Source: Peribacillus frigoritolerans
GTDB lineage: Bacteria; Bacillota; Bacilli; Bacillales; DSM-1321
Reading direction: 5' to 3'
Length of the DNA: 64,000 nt
Assembly: GCF_040250305.1 (NCBI RefSeq)
Contig: NZ_CP158190.1
Coordinates: 5,426,001-5,490,000 of the forward strand
In this document: piece after piece, positions 46,745 to 56,452 of the stretch
Position numbering within the stretch: the stretch's first letter is position 1
How the letters are laid out: the number at the start of each line of letters is the position of its first letter
Position numbers and translations under genes: made by a program
Notes under the pieces: generated by a model
The model's database searches: none
Seen by the model: the letters and a program-made list of their open reading frames with translations, nothing else
What the model was told of the DNA's origin: nothing

Positions 46745-46935
46745 ACACACCTTCCCATCCGCGTAGGTTACAGGTGTACGAATTTTGGCAGGTCTCCTGG
46801 CTCATGGTCATCGTCAACGGCACCTTCCCATATCTCATACAGTGGTACACAGCCGTCAGCTCCCATATACAGTGGCGGGACCGCGCTGGCATTTCACCAG
46901 CTTCCCTTTTAAGTCATTACGACACCAAATCGTTC
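46745..46935 (-). ncRNA. Cobalamin riboswitch
   Basis: The minus strand shows the AdoCbl aptamer hallmarks in order: GGGAAGCTGGTGAAATGCCAGC (P3/P4 region, trimmed to its GGTGAAA-type core), CCCGCCACTG, and the B12 box GAGCCAGGAGACCTGCC followed by the closing stem. A hairpin terminator lies about 40 bases downstream, so bound cobalamin should stop transcription of the whole btuF-cblS operon. Confidence 0.95.
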
Positions 46936-47030
46936 ATATGTATATAATTTTCACTGCCTTCATTATACACCATGTAAGAATCGATTATTAAATGATTTTT
47001 CTGAACAGGTTCGAAATGCCCCTGCCACCT

Positions 47031-48853: not shown

Positions 48854-48885
48854 AAAAAGGATGGAGCGATTGCTCCATCCTTTTT
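48854..48885. terminator. Bidirectional terminator after the mini-genes
   Basis: A perfect 14-bp stem (AAAAAGGATGGAGC / GCTCCATCCTTTTT) with loop GATT, which also ends the topB remnant on the other strand. Confidence 0.92.
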
Positions 48886-48888
48886 CTT

Positions 48889-49190
48889 TTATTTATCGAA
48901 TTTCAGTTTCGCCAAGGCATCTGCCAATGCAGTATTAATCGGCTCTTCTTTATTTTGCTTTTTCATATAATTGGATACTTCATTTTTGGATACTTTTTGA
49001 TTTTTATTTTGCCCTCTTCGTTTATTGTAAGAAGATAGTTTTTCGTGAAAACCGCATTTACAGGTGAATGTCTGTGCTTCTCCTTGACCGCGCATTTCCA
49101 TCTTTTTATGACATTGCGGGCATCTGGCATTTGTTACACGTGAAACACTTTTTTTGTGGCCGCAATCAGGACATTTCGTTCCTGACGGGG
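48889..49190 (-). pseudogene. C-terminal remnant of a DNA topoisomerase III gene (topB)
   Basis: Minus-strand translation gives only the zinc-ribbon tail of a TopB: KCPDCGHKK, VTNARCPQCHKKMEMRG, FTCKCGFHEKLS and a C-terminal ALADALAKLKFDK. It aligns with the tail of the intact TopB encoded at 49421-51610 (VTNARCPQCKKKMELRG, FTCKCGYREKLS, FNLDK). The toprim and catalytic domains are absent and no start is present. It keeps its original terminator. Confidence 0.82.
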
Positions 49191-49420
49191 ACGAATATGG
49201 AATATCTCCTACTTTAAGATTTATTCAAATATAGAAACTACAATTTCTCCTAAAAAAGTTAATGAAATTTCCAGAGAAAATACACGCTTAAAAAAAGAAG
49301 TTTAAATTCTCAAACAAGCAATGTCTATTATGTCCTCTAAAATAGGAGTGTATGGGGCAATTTCCTCCTTGAAATTATGTTATATTAGACGGTAAATAGT
49401 TAGTAAGGGAGTTTGAACAA
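49191..49420. other. Junction region with decayed coding trace
   Basis: The plus strand around 49219-49300 can be read as ISPKKVNEISRENTRLKKEV, stop, ILKQAMSIM, which looks like a fragment of a coiled-coil gene. No complete gene fits. The rest is AT-rich and includes the promoter region of topB. Confidence 0.35.
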
Positions 49421-51610
49421 ATGTCAAAAAGTGTGGTAATTGCTGAGAAGCCTTCAGTTGCACGTGATATCGCAAATGTATTGAAGTGCAATAAAAAAGG
49501 CAATGGGTTTTTAGAAGGCGATAAATACATCGTTACGTGGGCATTAGGACATTTAGTTACACTAGCAGATCCAGAGGCATACGATATTAAATATAAAACC
49601 TGGAAACTGGAAGACCTTCCTATGCTTCCTGAACACATGAAGTTAGTTGTCATGAAACAAACAGGAAAGCAATTTAATACTGTTAAAACACAATTAAATC
49701 GCAGTGATGTAAATGAAGTAATTGTGGCTACTGATGCAGGGAGAGAAGGAGAATTAGTTGCACGTTGGATTATTGATAAAGCAAAAGTTCATAAGCCTAT
49801 CAAACGACTCTGGATTTCTTCTGTAACAGATAAAGCTATTAAAGATGGATTCAATAACTTAAAGCCTGGTAAAGCTTATGAAGACTTGTATACTTCTGCA
49901 GTAGCACGTTCGGAAGCGGATTGGTATATCGGCTTGAATGCAACTCGTGCCTTAACGACAAAATTTAATGCACAATTAAACTGTGGACGTGTTCAAACAC
50001 CAACAGTTGCAATGGTTGCAGCACGCGAAGAGGAAATTGCGAATTTCAAACCGCAAACCTATTATGGAATCGAAGCCCAAACGGATGGACTCAAGTTAAC
50101 GTGGCAAGATGAAAATGGAAATAGTCGCAGCTTTAATAAAGAAAAGACCGACGCAATCGTGAAATCACTTGGAAGTAAAGATGCGACTGTTGTTACCATT
50201 GACCGCAAAGCAAAGAAAACATTCGCACCTGGTCTATATGATTTAACAGAGTTACAACGTGATGGGAATAAACTCTTTGGCTATTCTGCTAAAGAAACAT
50301 TGAACATTATGCAAAAATTGTACGAGCAACACAAAGTCTTGACTTATCCCCGTACAGATTCACGTTATTTATCATCCGATATCGTTAGTACGCTTCCGGA
50401 GCGTTTAAAAGCATGTGCCATAGGTGAATATCGTCCTCTTGCAAATAAAGTGTTAAGTAAACCTATTAAAGTGTCAAAAGGATTTGTGGATGATAGTAAA
50501 GTGAGTGATCACCATGCCATTATTCCAACTGAAGGTTACGTAAATATTTCATCCTTCACTGACAAAGAACGCAAAATCTACGACCTTGTCGTGAAACGTT
50601 TCTTAGCTGTTTTATTCCCTGCATTTGAATATGAGCAATTAACAGTGCAAACGAAAATCGGGGATCAAAAATTTATCGCTAAAGGAAAAACAGTGATTCA
50701 TTCTGGCTGGAAAGAAGTTTATGCAAACCATTTTGATGATGAAGAATCAGATGATGTAAAAGAGCAGTTATTACCTCGTATTGAAAAAGACGATGTATTA
50801 AAGACAAAAATAATCACTCAAACGTCAGGCCAAACAAAGCCCCCAGCACGCTTTACTGAGGCGACTTTACTATCAGCAATGGAAAATCCCACGAAATACA
50901 TGAAAACAAATGATAAAAAGCTTGTGGACACGTTAAAATCTACTGGAGGACTTGGTACAGTAGCCACTCGTGCTGATATCATCGATAAATTATTTAATTC
51001 GTTCTTATTCGAAAAACGTGGCGGTAAGGAAATCTATATCACAGCTAAGGGGCGTCAGCTTTTAGATTTAGTGCCAGAAAAACTAAAATCTCCTGCAACA
51101 ACAGCTGAGTGGGAACAAAAGCTCGAGCTAATCGCAAAAGGGAAACTGAAAAAAGATGTGTTCATCAATGAAATGAAAGATTACACAAAAGAGATTGTCA
51201 GTGCAATCAAAACGAGTGACAAAAAATATAAACATGACAATATCTCAACGAAATCCTGTCCAGACTGTGGTAAGCCAATGCTTGAAGTGAATAGCAAAAA
51301 AGGCAAAATGCTCGTCTGCCAAGATCGTGAATGCGGCCATAAAAAGAATGTCGCCCGTGTAACGAATGCACGCTGTCCACAATGTAAAAAGAAAATGGAA
51401 CTACGTGGTGAAGGCGATGGTCAAATCTTCACATGTAAATGCGGATACCGCGAGAAACTATCTGCTTTTGAAGCAAGACGTAAAAAAGAGTCTGGTGGAA
51501 AAGTGGATAAACGTTCCGTTCAGAAATATTTAAAAGAGCAGGAAAAAGAAGCCGAACCGATTAATAATCCATTTGCGGACTTATTAAAAGGGTTTAATTT
51601 AGATAAATAA
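49421..51610 (+). CDS. topB: DNA topoisomerase III
   Basis: This 729-residue type IA topoisomerase starts KSVVIAEKPSVARDIA (toprim, ~1-140, with VATDAGREGEL carrying metal ligands). It has the catalytic tyrosine in TYPRTDSRYL near residue 310, and ends with zinc-ribbon modules (CPDCGKPML, CPQCKKKMEL). It decatenates and relaxes DNA. It faces the opposite way from the topB remnant next door and is more AT-rich than the backbone, suggesting replacement by an acquired copy. Start ATG after AAGGGAG. Confidence 0.94.
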   Translation: MSKSVVIAEKPSVARDIANVLKCNKKGNGFLEGDKYIVTWALGHLVTLADPEAYDIKYKTWKLEDLPMLPEHMKLVVMKQTGKQFNTVKTQLNRSDVNEVIVATDAGREGELVARWIIDKAKVHKPIKRLWISSVTDKAIKDGFNNLKPGKAYEDLYTSAVARSEADWYIGLNATRALTTKFNAQLNCGRVQTPTVAMVAAREEEIANFKPQTYYGIEAQTDGLKLTWQDENGNSRSFNKEKTDAIVKSLGSKDATVVTIDRKAKKTFAPGLYDLTELQRDGNKLFGYSAKETLNIMQKLYEQHKVLTYPRTDSRYLSSDIVSTLPERLKACAIGEYRPLANKVLSKPIKVSKGFVDDSKVSDHHAIIPTEGYVNISSFTDKERKIYDLVVKRFLAVLFPAFEYEQLTVQTKIGDQKFIAKGKTVIHSGWKEVYANHFDDEESDDVKEQLLPRIEKDDVLKTKIITQTSGQTKPPARFTEATLLSAMENPTKYMKTNDKKLVDTLKSTGGLGTVATRADIIDKLFNSFLFEKRGGKEIYITAKGRQLLDLVPEKLKSPATTAEWEQKLELIAKGKLKKDVFINEMKDYTKEIVSAIKTSDKKYKHDNISTKSCPDCGKPMLEVNSKKGKMLVCQDRECGHKKNVARVTNARCPQCKKKMELRGEGDGQIFTCKCGYREKLSAFEARRKKESGGKVDKRSVQKYLKEQEKEAEPINNPFADLLKGFNLDK

Positions 51611-51613
51611 TAA

Positions 51614-51664
51614 TTTTTTGCCCTCCACTCCCGAAAATGTAGATTTAGGGAGCGGAGGGCAAAA
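51614..51664. repeat. Long inverted repeat after topB
   Basis: TTTTGCCCTCC-a-CTCCC pairs with GGGAG-c-GGAGGGCAAAA. No T run follows on either strand, so it may act as an RNA-stability or factor-dependent end rather than a standard terminator. Confidence 0.7.
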
Positions 51665-51777
51665 CATCCAAATTGATTTCCGCAACCCAAAACGAGACGA
51701 TAACCAATCTTTAAAATGCCCTGTCGAAGTCCATTTGAGATAAAGAACGTACATAATCTTCGTAAAATGAGTGATTT

Positions 51778-51813
51778 GGAAGCTTTATGAGGTGAAAGCT
51801 GCACGTACAGTGT
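51778..51813 (+). mobile_element. Group II intron domain V remnant
   Basis: The sequence AGCTTTATG-AGGT-GAAA-GCTG-CACGTAC-AGTGT has the domain V layout: an AGC catalytic triad, lower stem, two-base bulge (AC) and GAAA tetraloop. No reverse-transcriptase reading frame or other intron domains are intact nearby, so this is a decayed 3' fragment. Confidence 0.6.
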
Positions 51814-51864
51814 GGAGCAGAACAAAAGATGAAGATTATATCGTTATTAAGTGTCAATTTACGC

Positions 51865-52506
51865 CTATTTTACAGGTGTTAAGAAGAAAGAAACATTTTT
51901 ATTAGTCGAAAATCCACTTTGGTTAAGTTCCAACCATGTATTCTCCTTCAGGTCAATTTCAAACTGATTAGCATCTCCAAAGGAATCTCCTCCTATAATT
52001 TTTTGCAAATCATCAGATATAATTTGGAACCATGGATCCTCCTTTAATGATTCATTATTTCTGGTTTCATAAGTAATGATATATTTTCCGGATTTTATTT
52101 GTTCATCAATTTGATAGAAACCAGAATGATGTATTTTATAGACATCACCATCTTTACTAACTGGTGAAAAAGCTGATCTTTCAAGCTTAATTGTTCCTTT
52201 TCCACTAACTTGGGCTATATTTTCATCATAAAGTTTCAAACCTAAAAAATGATCACCATCTGAAAGTTGAGTACCATTAAAATAATTATCACCATCGCTT
52301 GTAACGTCATAATACCCCTCTGGAATATCGTTTCCTACATGGAAGTTGCCTTGTGTGAGTCTGTATTCGATACCTCCGCCCTTGATTTTTTTTGTTTCAA
52401 GGTGTTCATTTGGCGTAAGAGATTTTATGAATTCCGGTATGGATATTATTGTGAGTAAACATACAAATGTGATAACCAAAAAAATCATTTGAGATTTTCT
52501 CATCAT
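51865..52506 (-). CDS. Membrane-anchored extracytoplasmic protein with duplicated beta module
   Basis: This 213-residue protein has one N-terminal membrane helix (~7-27) and a beta-rich outer part. Two similar modules follow a G-x-[FY]-x-[VI]-x(3)-I-x(2)-G-x-Y pattern (GNFHVGNDIPEGYYDV near 53 and GFYQIDEQIKSGKYII near 130), as seen in secreted Gram-positive proteins of unknown role. It is the last gene of the ABC operon and overlaps the ATPase stop in ATGATGA. A self-protection or signal-handling role for the exported peptide is possible but not shown. Confidence 0.7.
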   Translation of the reverse strand: MMRKSQMIFLVITFVCLLTIISIPEFIKSLTPNEHLETKKIKGGGIEYRLTQGNFHVGNDIPEGYYDVTSDGDNYFNGTQLSDGDHFLGLKLYDENIAQVSGKGTIKLERSAFSPVSKDGDVYKIHHSGFYQIDEQIKSGKYIITYETRNNESLKEDPWFQIISDDLQKIIGGDSFGDANQFEIDLKENTWLELNQSGFSTNKNVSFFLTPVK

Positions 52507-53126
52507 TTTAACCGTCCATTACTAATTTCTATAACTTCATCACAAATCGGGAAAACATCCTCTTTATTATGAGTGGCAATAATGATAGTTGCACCTCTCT
52601 CCCGTTCTTCTTGAAAAATATCAAGAACTCGTTCCACACCTTTTTCATCAATTGCATTAGTTGGTTCATCCAATAAAATAATTTCAGGTTTTTCAAAAAT
52701 TGCTTGTGCTATATTCAGTCGCTGCTTCATACCTAGAGAATATTTTCTTACTTTCAATGTACCGAACCGATCCAGCTCAAGTCTCTTTATGGCGTGTTGT
52801 ATATCTTCGAGCGACGCTGTTTTCTTAATCGCAGCAAGAATTTTCAAATTAGTCTCAGCATCGAATTGGGGAAGCAATTCGAGATTTTCAATAATAATAC
52901 CGATACTTGGCGGAAACGAAATATCTTTATGCAATACTTTTTCATTAATGGTTACACTGCCTTCAGTTGGAATAATAAGTCCAGCTATCGCCCGAAGCAA
53001 CATGGTCTTACCAGATCCATTTTTTCCAACCAAACCATAGATTCTCCCTTTTTCGAAGGTGTAAGTGATGTTTTGTAAAACATTATTTTTTTTTAACTTC
53101 TTTGATAAGTCATGGACTTCAATCAT
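52503..53126 (-). CDS. ABC transporter ATPase of the DUF2712 peptide operon
   Basis: This 207-residue ATPase has Walker A GLVGKNGSGKTMLL near 33-46, Q-loop, a variant signature YSLGMKQRLNIAQ and Walker B IILLDEPTNAID. The S-L-G-M-K-Q-R signature is typical of exporters and bacteriocin-immunity ABC systems of bacilli. It should energise the membrane proteins encoded just upstream. It follows the last permease gene by 9 bases. Confidence 0.92.
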   Translation of the reverse strand: MIEVHDLSKKLKKNNVLQNITYTFEKGRIYGLVGKNGSGKTMLLRAIAGLIIPTEGSVTINEKVLHKDISFPPSIGIIIENLELLPQFDAETNLKILAAIKKTASLEDIQHAIKRLELDRFGTLKVRKYSLGMKQRLNIAQAIFEKPEIILLDEPTNAIDEKGVERVLDIFQEERERGATIIIATHNKEDVFPICDEVIEISNGRLK

Positions 53127-53135
53127 TATAATTCC

Positions 53136-53864
53136 TCACATTAATTCTATTTTTTTTATTCTTATTACGGAAAGACAAAGCAGAAACAAAATAATAACAA
53201 CTAAAAAAAGCCCCGGCTCATTTAATTGGCCTACCGTTTCCTGCAAGTTAGGATTAGCAATAATGCCATTGCGAAAACTCATTGAAAGGTTCGGGAAAAA
53301 CACATGAAATAGCACTTTTTTTTGAACGAAACCTTCAACAATCGTTATTGATAGAAGCACATAACAATTGGTTAATATAAACGCCAATTGAGATTTCATA
53401 TACAGTTCCAATATCATTTGTATGGATAAAATAGCCATGATTGTTAACACATAAAACAATATACCTTCAAACAGGTGTGTAAATTCAAGTACAGGATCAG
53501 ATTCCAAGATTGTTTGAAAAAAAGTTGTAGCAATTAATTGAGAAAAAACTAAAACCAGTACAACCCTCCACATATGGATTACTTTAGACATTAGCCATGA
53601 AATCCTACTTTTTCCCCTTAAAATGATATATTTTCCGTAATCAAATAGTGAATCCGAGATGTGTCCTAATAAAATGAAGCTACTTGCAGCTATCGATATA
53701 TACCAGCCCATTAAATAGGTAACTGAGTGAGGATAACTAACTGGTGTCGGTACCCCATCCAAAAACGGAAAGGAAGAATGAGCTAAACTATCATTCATGA
53801 AATATACATATTGGATGAGTGCAACAATAAACAAGATGAACGCTTCATTTCTAAATTGAGTCAT
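53136..53864 (-). CDS. ABC permease-like membrane protein A (DUF2705-like)
   Basis: This 242-residue protein has about six membrane helices with an ILRGKSRISWLMSKV cytoplasmic loop, the feature that links DUF2705-like ABC permeases (RGKSR before a helix). It overlaps the preceding gene by 14 bases. It is one of three different membrane proteins in the operon and forms the transmembrane part with the ATPase. Substrate unknown. Confidence 0.8.
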   Translation of the reverse strand: MTQFRNEAFILFIVALIQYVYFMNDSLAHSSFPFLDGVPTPVSYPHSVTYLMGWYISIAASSFILLGHISDSLFDYGKYIILRGKSRISWLMSKVIHMWRVVLVLVFSQLIATTFFQTILESDPVLEFTHLFEGILFYVLTIMAILSIQMILELYMKSQLAFILTNCYVLLSITIVEGFVQKKVLFHVFFPNLSMSFRNGIIANPNLQETVGQLNEPGLFLVVIILFLLCLSVIRIKKIELM

Positions 53865-54573
53865 TTTTCAGGTAATCCTTCCTTTGAAACATGTTCCACC
53901 CAAAAACAAGCAGGACTACGACAATCGTTATTTGGCGCAAATAAATCGTTACTATACTGTACATATCACCAGAAGCTACTAATAATAAAACGATATTTGC
54001 TAGATCTCGAATCGGTGTATACAACTCTTGCATGACTAACTTATTGAAAAAGAAAGTCAATGTCACAATAAAAAACACAAAAGAGTAAGATAATATATCT
54101 GAATTTAGGATCGTTTTAATCGCTATATAAAGAAGAGCTAGCGAGAAATAATAAAAAACAAGACCAAGAAACTCACATAATAGGATCTGAACAAAACTTA
54201 CATCTTTTAAAAAAACACTTCCCAAATAGAAAAGGTTATAGCCACTTAAAATGAAAAGATGGATTGTAACGAAAATAAGAACTGCATAGAAAGCATTTAG
54301 AACGTCCTTCTGATATTTTGCACCACGCATTAAATATCTAACTGTTGCTGCTGCATGACTTGGAGTTGCAGTGTTTTTTACGAACATCAAAAAAGGATAA
54401 GTGAAAAATAGCACATGTGCTTCGATTGAATTCGGCGAATATATATTAGAGTTTATTGAGAGAAACCTGTTATAAAGTGGTTGAAGATGAACAAAGTCAC
54501 TTGTTTGTTTATACCAAAGCACCACCATAAACAGGAATAAACAGATAGTTGAAAGCAACCGTTTAGATTTCAT
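53851..54573 (-). CDS. ABC permease-like membrane protein B (DUF2705-like)
   Basis: This 240-residue protein has about six membrane helices, a short N-terminal helix followed by an extracytoplasmic segment, and a cytoplasmic loop YLMRGAKYQKDVLNAF that parallels the RGKSR loop of protein A. The two are distant paralogues. It overlaps the upstream gene by 11 bases, so the three membrane genes are translationally coupled. Confidence 0.78.
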   Translation of the reverse strand: MKSKRLLSTICLFLFMVVLWYKQTSDFVHLQPLYNRFLSINSNIYSPNSIEAHVLFFTYPFLMFVKNTATPSHAAATVRYLMRGAKYQKDVLNAFYAVLIFVTIHLFILSGYNLFYLGSVFLKDVSFVQILLCEFLGLVFYYFSLALLYIAIKTILNSDILSYSFVFFIVTLTFFFNKLVMQELYTPIRDLANIVLLLVASGDMYSIVTIYLRQITIVVVLLVFGWNMFQRKDYLKNDSI

Positions 54574-55324
54574 TTATCTTCACCTCATGGAGGTACGTCA
54601 ATATATACAAAATAAGAAAAGCAAGAGTTGAAGTAATAAAAATGGGTACTAAAGTCTCTAACCCGTACTCGGCAAACGGTTGAAATAGATACATTACCGA
54701 CTCCTTATTTGAAATAAGGATATACCAAAATGCAAACGTTACTGGATACGTTATTTTTTTATCGTAAGTCAGCATACTAAAGCAAGTACCAGCAGCCCCT
54801 ATCAAACCCGCAAAAAAAGAGGTTGTTAAGGAAAATAAAAAGATACTAAGATAAGGACTTTCGACTTGCTTCTTTAAAAAAGCTTCCCCTGACACTCCGT
54901 CATAATTGTTTGCTGTACTAAATCCGGCCATATCAAAAAAAAGAGAATTGATTAAAAAATTTATTGTTAAGGCTAAAAAAATCACAGAAAAAGACACAAT
55001 AAAAGAAGCTTTAAGCTTAACAAAGAAGTATTTCTTTTTTCCTAATTTAGAAATCCAGATGTCTCTAACGCCAGTCTTCTTATCTTGTATAGGATCATCT
55101 GAGCAAATCACCAGTAAGTAAAGTGGGAGAAACCACAGTAAAATAATTTGTGTTACATGTCCAATCGTCGACCCTGAAAGAAAAAAGGCCTTTGCCAGAT
55201 AGGAATCTTCATAAATATCAGCCGATAATAACTGAATGATCTCCATACAAGGAATCAGGATGATAGCTAAAATTCCAAAACGACTTAATTTATTTCTAAA
55301 CACTCTACTAATTTGACTTTTCAT
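54563..55324 (-). CDS. ABC permease-like membrane protein C
   Basis: This 253-residue protein starts SQISRVFRNKLSRFGIL, with a basic stretch then a helix, and has six membrane helices with a cytoplasmic loop DKKTGVRDIWISKLGKKKYFFVKL. This pattern matches ABC-2 type permeases that insert or export peptides. It has a good ribosome site (AAGGAGAAAAA) and starts 116 bases after the peptide gene. Confidence 0.78.
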   Translation of the reverse strand: MKSQISRVFRNKLSRFGILAIILIPCMEIIQLLSADIYEDSYLAKAFFLSGSTIGHVTQIILLWFLPLYLLVICSDDPIQDKKTGVRDIWISKLGKKKYFFVKLKASFIVSFSVIFLALTINFLINSLFFDMAGFSTANNYDGVSGEAFLKKQVESPYLSIFLFSLTTSFFAGLIGAAGTCFSMLTYDKKITYPVTFAFWYILISNKESVMYLFQPFAEYGLETLVPIFITSTLAFLILYILTYLHEVKINEI

Positions 55325-55360
55325 TTTTTCTCCTTGTTATGCATTTTAAGGCTCATATAA

Positions 55361-55400
55361 GCCCCCTCATACGAATCTTTCATGATGGTAAAAAGGGGGC
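55361..55400 (-). terminator. Partial-readthrough hairpin between the peptide gene and the transporter operon
   Basis: On the minus strand GCCCCCT pairs with AGGGGGC around a long loop and is followed by TTATAT, a weak T run. It would give more peptide transcript than transporter transcript. Confidence 0.5.
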
Positions 55401-55440
55401 GGCCTCTAACATACATGAATATGGATATGCTATCTTCCTG

Positions 55441-55857
55441 TTAACGCACTGCTGGATCCCAATATCCTTCTACGATATGTGATTTTGTAGATAAGTTATT
55501 ATTTTCAGCGCCAATACGTACTGAACCACTGACAGCTTTTTTAACTTTACTGGTATATTTTTTTCCTTGGTAATATTCGCTTGGATATGAGTAGGAAGTA
55601 CTTCCCTTAGCAAGCCACATTATCGAAATTGTCCCTGCACCTTCTGAAGAATAGGCAAGATTCAAATACCATGGAGCATTCTTTTCTGCGGTCGATCTTG
55701 ATTGCGTTTTTGAGTAGCCATTCTCGTAAGTAGTGCCCTTATCCGGATTGCTAGATGCAGGAACAGTAAAACGAAAACTTTTATCATCACTCGTATTGTT
55801 AGCTGCAAAAACACTTGAACCAATACTAAAAATTGAGGCGATAATCAATACAAACAT
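55441..55857 (-). CDS. Secreted DUF2712-like peptide
   Basis: The visible 138-residue frame from ATG 55857 begins inside a signal peptide (VLIIASIFSIGSSVFA, cleavage after FA-AN), leaving a ~120-residue Ser/Tyr/Asn-rich exported product ending AENNNLSTKSHIVEGYWDPAVR. The pattern matches DUF2712-type secreted proteins of bacilli. Upstream the frame stays open for 16 codons (KKKN ... RKSNFL), which would supply the missing basic n-region but has no ATG, GTG or TTG. It heads the ABC operon. Toxin, bacteriocin or signal roles are possible. Confidence 0.75.
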   Translation of the reverse strand: MFVLIIASIFSIGSSVFAANNTSDDKSFRFTVPASSNPDKGTTYENGYSKTQSRSTAEKNAPWYLNLAYSSEGAGTISIMWLAKGSTSYSYPSEYYQGKKYTSKVKKAVSGSVRIGAENNNLSTKSHIVEGYWDPAVR

Positions 55858-55929
55858 TAAAAAATTTGATTTTCTTGAAATAGTAATATTTTTCTTCTTA
55901 TATAATTATTTTGTAATCAACTAATTTTT

Positions 55930-56452
55930 TTAACATTCCGTTAATTACAATAATCTATATTCACCCTAAGTAATAGTTCTCTAACGGCGCCAATTTAGAG
56001 ACTCCACACCCATTAAACTTACCCTGTTCAACTTGATTATATTGTGCAAAAAAAAAAGGCCTTTATAATGGATGAATCAGAATCTGTTCTCAAAATAATA
56101 ATTTCGAATGAGCTTTTTTCTAATTTGTGATGGTTACTCCGATTTCCCGAATAAAGCTTCATAAATTAAGCATGGGATATCCTCATTTTATAAGAATTAA
56201 AGACACAAGGAGTTTCAAATTTGAAACTCCTTGTGTCTTTTTTGACATTTAATTGAGTCCTTTTTATGATTCGTAGTAGAGAGTATCGACCACTCGCGGA
56301 GAAGGCGGGAGTTCCATAACACAGTAATCGATGGGCCGCTCTTCTCAGTACCCACATATATGTAAATTAATAGATTAGATAGCATTCCTGTGCAGATTTT
56401 AGTATGATGAAACGTAGGGATTTTTTCAAATTAATTGGGAGGTTCAATATAA
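55930..56452. other. Leader region before the ABC-F gene
   Basis: This 520-base stretch has no clear gene. A 20-codon frame (56068-56130, plus strand, starting MDESESV) lacks a strong ribosome site. A perfect 42-base palindrome follows at 56199, then GC-richer sequence (56280-56350) that can fold. The layout resembles a regulated leader. Confidence 0.45.
56199..56246 (+). terminator. Perfect 21-bp-arm hairpin with T run
   Basis: Arms AAAGACACAAGGAGTTTCAAA and its exact complement meet with no unpaired loop bases, followed by TTTTTT on the plus strand. No plus-strand gene lies in the 580 bases before it, and the ABC-F gene starts 207 bases after it. Confidence 0.8.

What the first reader, a model, noticed from the sequence alone, without database searches (positions are those of the whole stretch)
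51865..55910. DUF2712-like secreted peptide with a three-membrane-subunit ABC transporter and an anchored beta protein
Six minus-strand genes run with overlaps: secreted peptide, three distinct six-helix proteins, ATPase, and a one-helix protein with duplicated beta modules. A weak hairpin after the peptide gene would raise peptide over transporter levels, as in bacteriocin or signal peptide systems. The AT-rich setting beside a tRNA and intron debris suggests transfer. No known function is assigned to this arrangement.
Basis: partly seen in the sequence, partly recalled or inferred. Interest (0 to 1): 0.82.

Follow-up and report, generated by a model that had tools for sequence, protein, structure and literature searches.

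The report
Secreted beta-protein with three-permease transporter cassette
A six-gene cassette that moves between soil bacteria encodes a small exported protein together with its own membrane pump and a membrane-tethered partner; it is the same kind as an operon of Bacillus subtilis whose job is still unknown, and it looks most like a bacteriocin with self-protection.

Summary
Six minus-strand genes (51865-55887) encode an exported DUF2712 protein, three divergent ABC-2-like half-permeases (M1; WxPxxD; DUF2705), an ATPase and a one-helix protein with two beta domains. They form an inherited cassette: in 397 genomes of the order all 16 DUF2712 matches (15 genomes) lie within 2 kb of a WxPxxD gene, and the order pep-M1-M2-M3-ATPase-beta is seen in 26 of 31 fetched loci. 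The kind is known: it corresponds to the B. subtilis yybN operon, Rok-bound, horizontally acquired, 'of unknown function'. Added here: the sixth gene; three permeases throughout (the published model omits YybM); a recurrent hairpin between peptide gene and transporter (13 of 19); copies on two plasmids; and strong evidence of transfer, topB plus operon having replaced the native topB. In this genome the peptide gene has ATT where four close relatives have a canonical start codon, and a weak ribosome-binding site. Best explanation: a bacteriocin-like exported protein with a LanFEG-like self-protection pump and a tethered, LanI-like beta protein (0.45). My searches found no experiment that shows a function.

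The parts
55441..55887 (-). DUF2712 exported protein (148 codons from the position where relatives start; codon at 55887 is ATT here; first ATG at 55857)
   Evidence: PF10916 45.9 bits, cut-off 22; relatives of 148 aa; start region; signal-like features; AF2 all-beta
55325..55440 (-). Intergenic hairpin between peptide gene and transporter genes
   Evidence: z -2.3; aligned in five close relatives; z <= -2 in the same place in 13 of 19 loci
54563..55324 (-). M1, permease-like protein; counterpart of YybM by position (recalled)
   Evidence: 17-member alignment A1; 10 of 17 members match DUF2705 at E <= 0.1, best 1e-9, the window's own does not; profile match to M3 at 93%
53851..54573 (-). M2, WxPxxD family membrane protein
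   Evidence: NF035952 216.3 bits, cut-off 70
53136..53864 (-). M3, DUF2705 membrane protein, ABC-2-like
   Evidence: PF10920 115.4 bits, cut-off 22.4; PF10920 also matches an ABC-2 permease at 40.9 bits
52503..53126 (-). ABC ATPase; best NCBIfam family is lantibiotic-protection ATPase, below its cut-off
   Evidence: TIGR03740 149.6 bits, cut-off 309.75; this family matches 20 of 20 members of A9 at E <= 1e-30
51865..52506 (-). One-span protein with two beta domains, inferred to lie outside the cell
   Evidence: AF2 pLDDT 90.6, helix 4-30 then beta strands; Rv1352/Rv1906c-type motif in 12 of 18 members at E <= 0.1 (window 18.5 bits, cut-off 25)
49172..56341 (.). Exchanged segment: another topB (+) plus the operon (right end lies between about 56002 and 56348)
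   Evidence: Flanks 96% identical to same-species G031; operon absent there and topB only 66% and in the other orientation; 49341-56002 is 92-94% identical to G020
48880..49171 (-). C-terminal remnant of the native, divergent topB
   Evidence: 96% identical to the native topB end in G031

Best explanation
This is a mobile cassette for a Sec-exported small basic beta-sandwich protein that acts outside the cell, most likely as a bacteriocin on the envelope of related Gram-positive cells, together with its own self-protection machine. Steps: (1) read from sequence: the peptide has Sec-type signal features, so it should need no dedicated exporter; (2) inferred: the hairpin behind its gene lets the peptide be made in excess over the transporter; (3) inferred: ATPase plus ABC-2-like half-permeases work like LanFEG, pulling the peptide, or peptide bound to its envelope target, off the producer's membrane; (4) inferred: the tethered two-domain beta protein holds or hands over the peptide outside, like LanI. 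M1, the best conserved of the three permeases, is taken to be a constant part of the complex.
For: Peptide and transporter are coupled: 16 of 16 DUF2712 matches in 397 genomes lie within 2 kb of a WxPxxD gene, and starting from M1 instead, 19 of 23 loci have at least pieces of a peptide gene, one of the other 4 being cut by its contig end; pairwise identities of the six proteins correlate at 0.83-0.97 over 21 loci. Signal features in 62 aligned peptides: hydrophobic core 62, K/R before it 61, a loosely defined A-x-A-like site 62 (own script). TIGR03740, lantibiotic-protection ATPase, is the best family for the window's ATPase and matches 20 of 20. In B. subtilis the operon is on the same list of Rok targets as sunA, sboA-alb and sdpABC, operons for antimicrobials (recalled). 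Two peptide genes in tandem in L029; plasmid copies; patchy: WxPxxD in 12 of 36 Peribacillus genomes. Purifying selection in five close relatives (four for beta): mean dN/dS 0.14-0.38 for peptide, M1, M2, M3 and beta; ATPase pairs 0.12-0.18, one identical pair giving no value.
Confidence: 0.45

Rival explanations
1. The transporter is the exporter or releaser of the peptide: after Sec translocation, or instead of it, the three-permease complex moves the protein out of the membrane to the medium.
For: The published B. subtilis survey files YybJ2KL among type V exporters, function unknown; PmtC, an exporter of secreted peptides, is among the best matches of the ATPase; strict coupling.
Against: The peptide carries Sec-type signal features (own script) and a predicted folded beta structure; neither would be needed for export by a dedicated ABC-2 transporter (inference).
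Confidence: 0.2
2. Not antimicrobial: the exported protein binds an envelope polymer or a nutrient such as iron, and the transporter and tethered protein belong to envelope or metal homeostasis.
For: yybN was among the top Fur ChIP candidates and its deletion gave moderate dipyridyl sensitivity; weak fold matches to carbohydrate-binding modules; the peptide changes no faster than M1.
Against: The fold matches are of the size that unrelated beta-sandwiches give (note); ABC-2-type permeases export as a rule (recalled); the passage read names expression changes in the fur mutant for cspB, catD and narJ, not for yybN.
Confidence: 0.22
3. A peptide-sensing or signalling unit: the beta protein senses the exported peptide and the transporter relays or resets the signal.
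For: In one clostridial locus (L072) a response regulator that looks LytTR-like by eye and a membrane protein lie directly upstream of the transporter (no family search).
Against: That locus has no DUF2712 hit. On the two plasmids an AraC-type and a LuxR-type regulator lie 1.0-1.5 kb downstream of the cassette, a different one on each. Flanking regulators were not searched for across loci.
Confidence: 0.06

Closest known systems
Bacillus subtilis yybN operon (yybN, yybM, yybL, yybK, yybJ; exact gene set partly recalled)
   Same: PF10916, NF035952 and PF10920 ring in B. subtilis, alone of 14 control genomes; AT-rich, thought horizontally acquired, Rok target, unknown function; one ATPase with several membrane proteins
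   Different: Whether B. subtilis has the sixth (beta) gene was not tested; the published structural model uses YybJ, YybK and YybL and does not mention YybM, while M1, M2 and M3 were all found in the 26 loci with the full order here
Lantibiotic protection transporters LanFEG with LanI
   Same: Closest NCBIfam ATPase family (TIGR03740); half-size ABC-2-like permeases; extra tethered extracytoplasmic protein (LanEG and LanI compared from memory)
   Different: Below the ATPase cut-off; three permeases; the peptide is not lantibiotic-like. Neighbouring ORFs were not searched for lantibiotic genes
Lactococcin 972 family (lcn972-orf2-orf3; scbABC)
   Same: Small beta-sandwich protein thought to be Sec-exported, followed by a putative ABC immunity unit (passages read)
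   Different: No match to lactococcin 972 families at E <= 1 (that these libraries hold such models is recalled); here the transporter is one ATPase, three small permeases and a beta protein

Membership tests
DUF2712 (yybN-type) cassette | PF10916 peptide over the curated cut-off | tested here: met
   45.9 bits, cut-off 22
DUF2712 (yybN-type) cassette | WxPxxD (NF035952) and DUF2705 (PF10920) membrane proteins over cut-off | tested here: met
   216.3 bits, cut-off 70; 115.4 bits, cut-off 22.4
DUF2712 (yybN-type) cassette | Order peptide-M1-M2-M3-ATPase | tested here: met
   Window and 25 others of 31 loci, most of them picked by a DUF2712 hit, some with a broken gene; 17 of 23 named loci picked by M1 have all six in order; the sets overlap. 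B. subtilis DNA itself was not read
Lantibiotic protection LanFEG | ATPase over TIGR03740 cut-off | tested here: not met
   149.6 bits, cut-off 309.75
Lantibiotic protection LanFEG | Lantibiotic-protection permease families | tested here: not met
   Only WxPxxD for M2 and nothing for M1 and M3 at E <= 1 in NCBIfam; that NCBIfam holds such permease models is recalled
Lactococcin 972 | Peptide matches a lactococcin 972 family model | tested here: not met
   No match at E <= 1 in Pfam or NCBIfam; HMMER's filters drop most matches above about 0.1
Lactococcin 972 | Same fold as lactococcin 972 | tested here: inconclusive
   Weak fold matches only; lactococcin 972 is not among the 50 rows shown
Bacteriocin | Kills or inhibits other bacteria | not testable with these tools
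   Needs an assay

The most novel reading that the evidence does not exclude
DUF2712 proteins are an unrecognised class of unmodified, Sec-exported beta-sandwich bacteriocins of Bacillales and some Clostridia, protected by an ABC machine that needs three different permeases and an interchangeable tethered outer domain (tandem beta modules in Bacillales, leucine-rich repeats in some Clostridia), and spread on plasmids and by exchange of a topB-linked segment.
Probability: 0.35. Interest if true: 0.72.

Novelty: new member of a known kind. Interest (0 to 1): 0.45.

Why it matters
The yybN operon lies in one of the eight Rok clusters of the B. subtilis genome and is described as of unknown function. 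The comparison says what to test: a bacteriocin and self-protection role, the membrane component left out of the published model (M1/YybM), and the sixth gene. If right it gives a new class of unmodified antimicrobial protein and an ABC transporter with an unusual three-permease make-up.

Full report
What is there. On the minus strand of 51865-55887 lie six genes: a DUF2712 protein, M1, M2 (WxPxxD), M3 (DUF2705), an ABC ATPase and a one-span beta protein. Neighbours overlap by 4 to 14 bases except for a 9-base gap between M3 and the ATPase and 116 bases between the peptide gene and M1. The host is a Peribacillus by its nearest peptide relatives, annotated as P. frigoritolerans and Peribacillus sp.. 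The genome holds a second, diverged copy at C1:4.90 Mb with two beta genes in tandem.

Not chance: an inherited cassette. DUF2712 occurs in 15 of 397 genomes sampled from the order, 16 matches in all; WxPxxD over cut-off in 17 of 397, 18 matches. Each of the 16 DUF2712 matches lies within 2 kb of a WxPxxD gene. Of the two WxPxxD loci without a DUF2712 match, G056 ends at its contig edge and G057 has other sequence there. In the class sample DUF2712 is rare: 2 of 348 genomes, one of them the window's own. The order peptide-M1-M2-M3-ATPase-beta is seen in 26 of 31 loci; most of these loci were fetched because of a DUF2712 hit, and some hold a broken or short gene. The exceptions are a remnant (L034), one locus with the peptide last and no beta hit (L057), one without peptide (L060), and two cut by contig ends (L059, L061). 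Starting from M1 instead, 17 of 23 named loci, which overlap the first set, have all six in order. The others are three Clostridia loci without a peptide hit (L072, L076, L079), one clostridial locus with peptide but another kind of sixth gene (L075), one broken in most genes (L078) and one cut by its contig start (L083). Over 21 loci with all six genes (one of 22, L066, dropped for a split ATPase) pairwise identities of the six proteins correlate at 0.83-0.97, so the unit descends as a whole.

The proteins. Peptide: in a 62-member alignment a hydrophobic core is seen in 62 of 62, a K or R before it in 61 and a loosely defined A-x-A-like site in 62 (a simple script, not a trained predictor). 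The inferred mature window protein has 120 residues, 13.2 kDa, pI 9.4. AlphaFold gives a nearly all-beta mature part (pLDDT 75-93 per block from residue 31 on) with only weak, generic beta-sandwich relatives. Permeases: M1-M3 and M2-M3 are related by profile (93% and 94.5%), M1-M2 not directly (8.6%). DUF2705 also matches an ABC-2 permease over its cut-off (40.9 bits), which ties M3 to the ABC-2 fold. M1 is the best conserved of the three (mean identity 0.43 against 0.30 and 0.31). ATPase: TIGR03740, lantibiotic protection, is the best NCBIfam family for the window's ATPase though well below its cut-off (149.6 against 309.75 bits), and it matches 20 of 20 cassette ATPases; so do drrA, PmtC and CcmA models. 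Beta protein: one N-terminal helix (4-30) with basic residues before it, then beta strands in two domains (pLDDT 90.6); a weak Rv1352/Rv1906c-type motif in 12 of 18 members. That the beta domains lie outside is inferred from the basic N-terminus. In two Clostridia loci the sixth gene is a leucine-rich-repeat protein instead (L075, L079), so a tethered outer domain seems wanted but not always of one fold.

Expression signals. The stretch between peptide gene and M1 is more stable than shuffles (z -2.3; 2 of 200 shuffles as stable). In 13 of 19 loci (window plus 18 named) it folds at z <= -2, in 6 of 19 it does not. The 19 include two groups of close relatives, so the count of independent cases is smaller; the stems differ in sequence between groups. 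An attenuator that favours the peptide is plausible and not shown. The sigma-70-type promoter scan found no more sites than shuffles (19 against 20.2), and its terminator scan no more than shuffles either (3 against 3.1); the intergenic hairpin is not among those three. In this genome the codon at the position where four close relatives have a canonical start is ATT, and the ribosome-binding site is weak; in one of those four, L031, a small frameshift follows the start. Whether the window's peptide is made is open. Codon comparison of five close relatives (four for beta) shows purifying selection on all six genes (mean dN/dS 0.24 for the peptide), so any loss is recent.

Transfer. By my count of the coordinates, 24 of 36 Peribacillus genomes, the same-species G031 among them, have a topB divergent from the ABC-F gene, about 180-400 bases apart, mostly 65-68% identical to the window's topB (in one, G015, topB is itself broken). 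In 5 of 36 (the window's genome, G020, G021, G025, G037) a topB that is 95-100% identical to the window's points towards the ABC-F gene with the operon in between. In 5 of 36 (G026 95%, G039 91%, G034 84%, G042 83%, G019 81%) such a co-directional topB is present without the operon in between. In 2 of 36 (G009, G010) the two genes are apart or split. The window keeps a C-terminal remnant of the native topB on the minus strand (48880-49171, 96% identical to G031), and identity to G031 resumes at 56348 at 96%. The interior (49341-56002) is 92-94% identical to G020, while the right flank is only 80-88% identical to it. The simplest reading is that topB plus operon came in together from a relative and replaced the native topB; whether the operon was added to or lost from the co-directional topB arrangement earlier is open. 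Plasmids of two Priestia strains carry the cassette, one with six and one with five listed genes in the same order (that gene table is incomplete).

What it is known as. PF10916, NF035952 and PF10920 ring in one of 14 control genomes, B. subtilis. That these are YybN, YybL and YybK is partly recalled. Passages read: Rok binds the yybN/yybM-yybL-yybK unit, whose mRNA rises in a rok mutant, a region postulated to be horizontally acquired, listed with sboA, sunA and sdpA (PMC2978689); 'operon of unknown function' (PMC11841835); YybJ2KL modelled as a type V exporter of unknown function, with a gap between the permeases judged unlikely to be accurate and no mention of YybM (PMC11466899); moderate dipyridyl sensitivity of a yybN deletion (PMC6212828). 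Searches for DUF2712, and for WxPxxD or DUF2705, found nothing relevant.

How it most likely works. The peptide has Sec-type signal features, so the pump is more likely to act on a peptide that is already outside. With a LanF-like ATPase, half-size ABC-2-like permeases and a tethered outer protein, self-protection of a bacteriocin producer fits best (0.45). Lactococcin 972-type loci are a working parallel: a beta-sandwich thought to be Sec-exported plus a putative ABC immunity unit, in which the roles of the B and C genes have also not been verified (PMC11796350, passages; PMC4055356, passages). Export or release of the peptide (0.2) and envelope or metal homeostasis (0.22) remain open. Nothing here shows killing, protection or the subunit make-up.

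Noticed in passing
48880-49171: Remnant of the native divergent topB, the scar of an allele swap that brought in another topB with the operon
   Followed up: yes
51778-51858: Sub-threshold match to the group II intron family (27.8 bits, gathering 40) just downstream of the beta gene
   Followed up: partly
56199-56240: 42-base palindrome, a terminator-like hairpin of 19 pairs, between the operon and the ABC-F gene
   Followed up: no
46770-46944: Cobalamin riboswitch (112.5 bits) upstream of what looks by eye like a corrinoid-type uptake operon
   Followed up: no
L020:3280-4643: Second cassette of the same genome has two tandem beta-protein genes
   Followed up: partly
L061:275-3372: A second, related M1-like and ATPase pair on the other strand next to a partial cassette
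   Followed up: no
L060:8300-9700: Cassette relative in which no DUF2712 hit lies upstream of M1; other, apparently disrupted coding sequence is there
   Followed up: partly
P0103: Database protein that joins the first part of a DUF2712 peptide to the last part of the ATPase, as an internal deletion of the operon would
   Followed up: no
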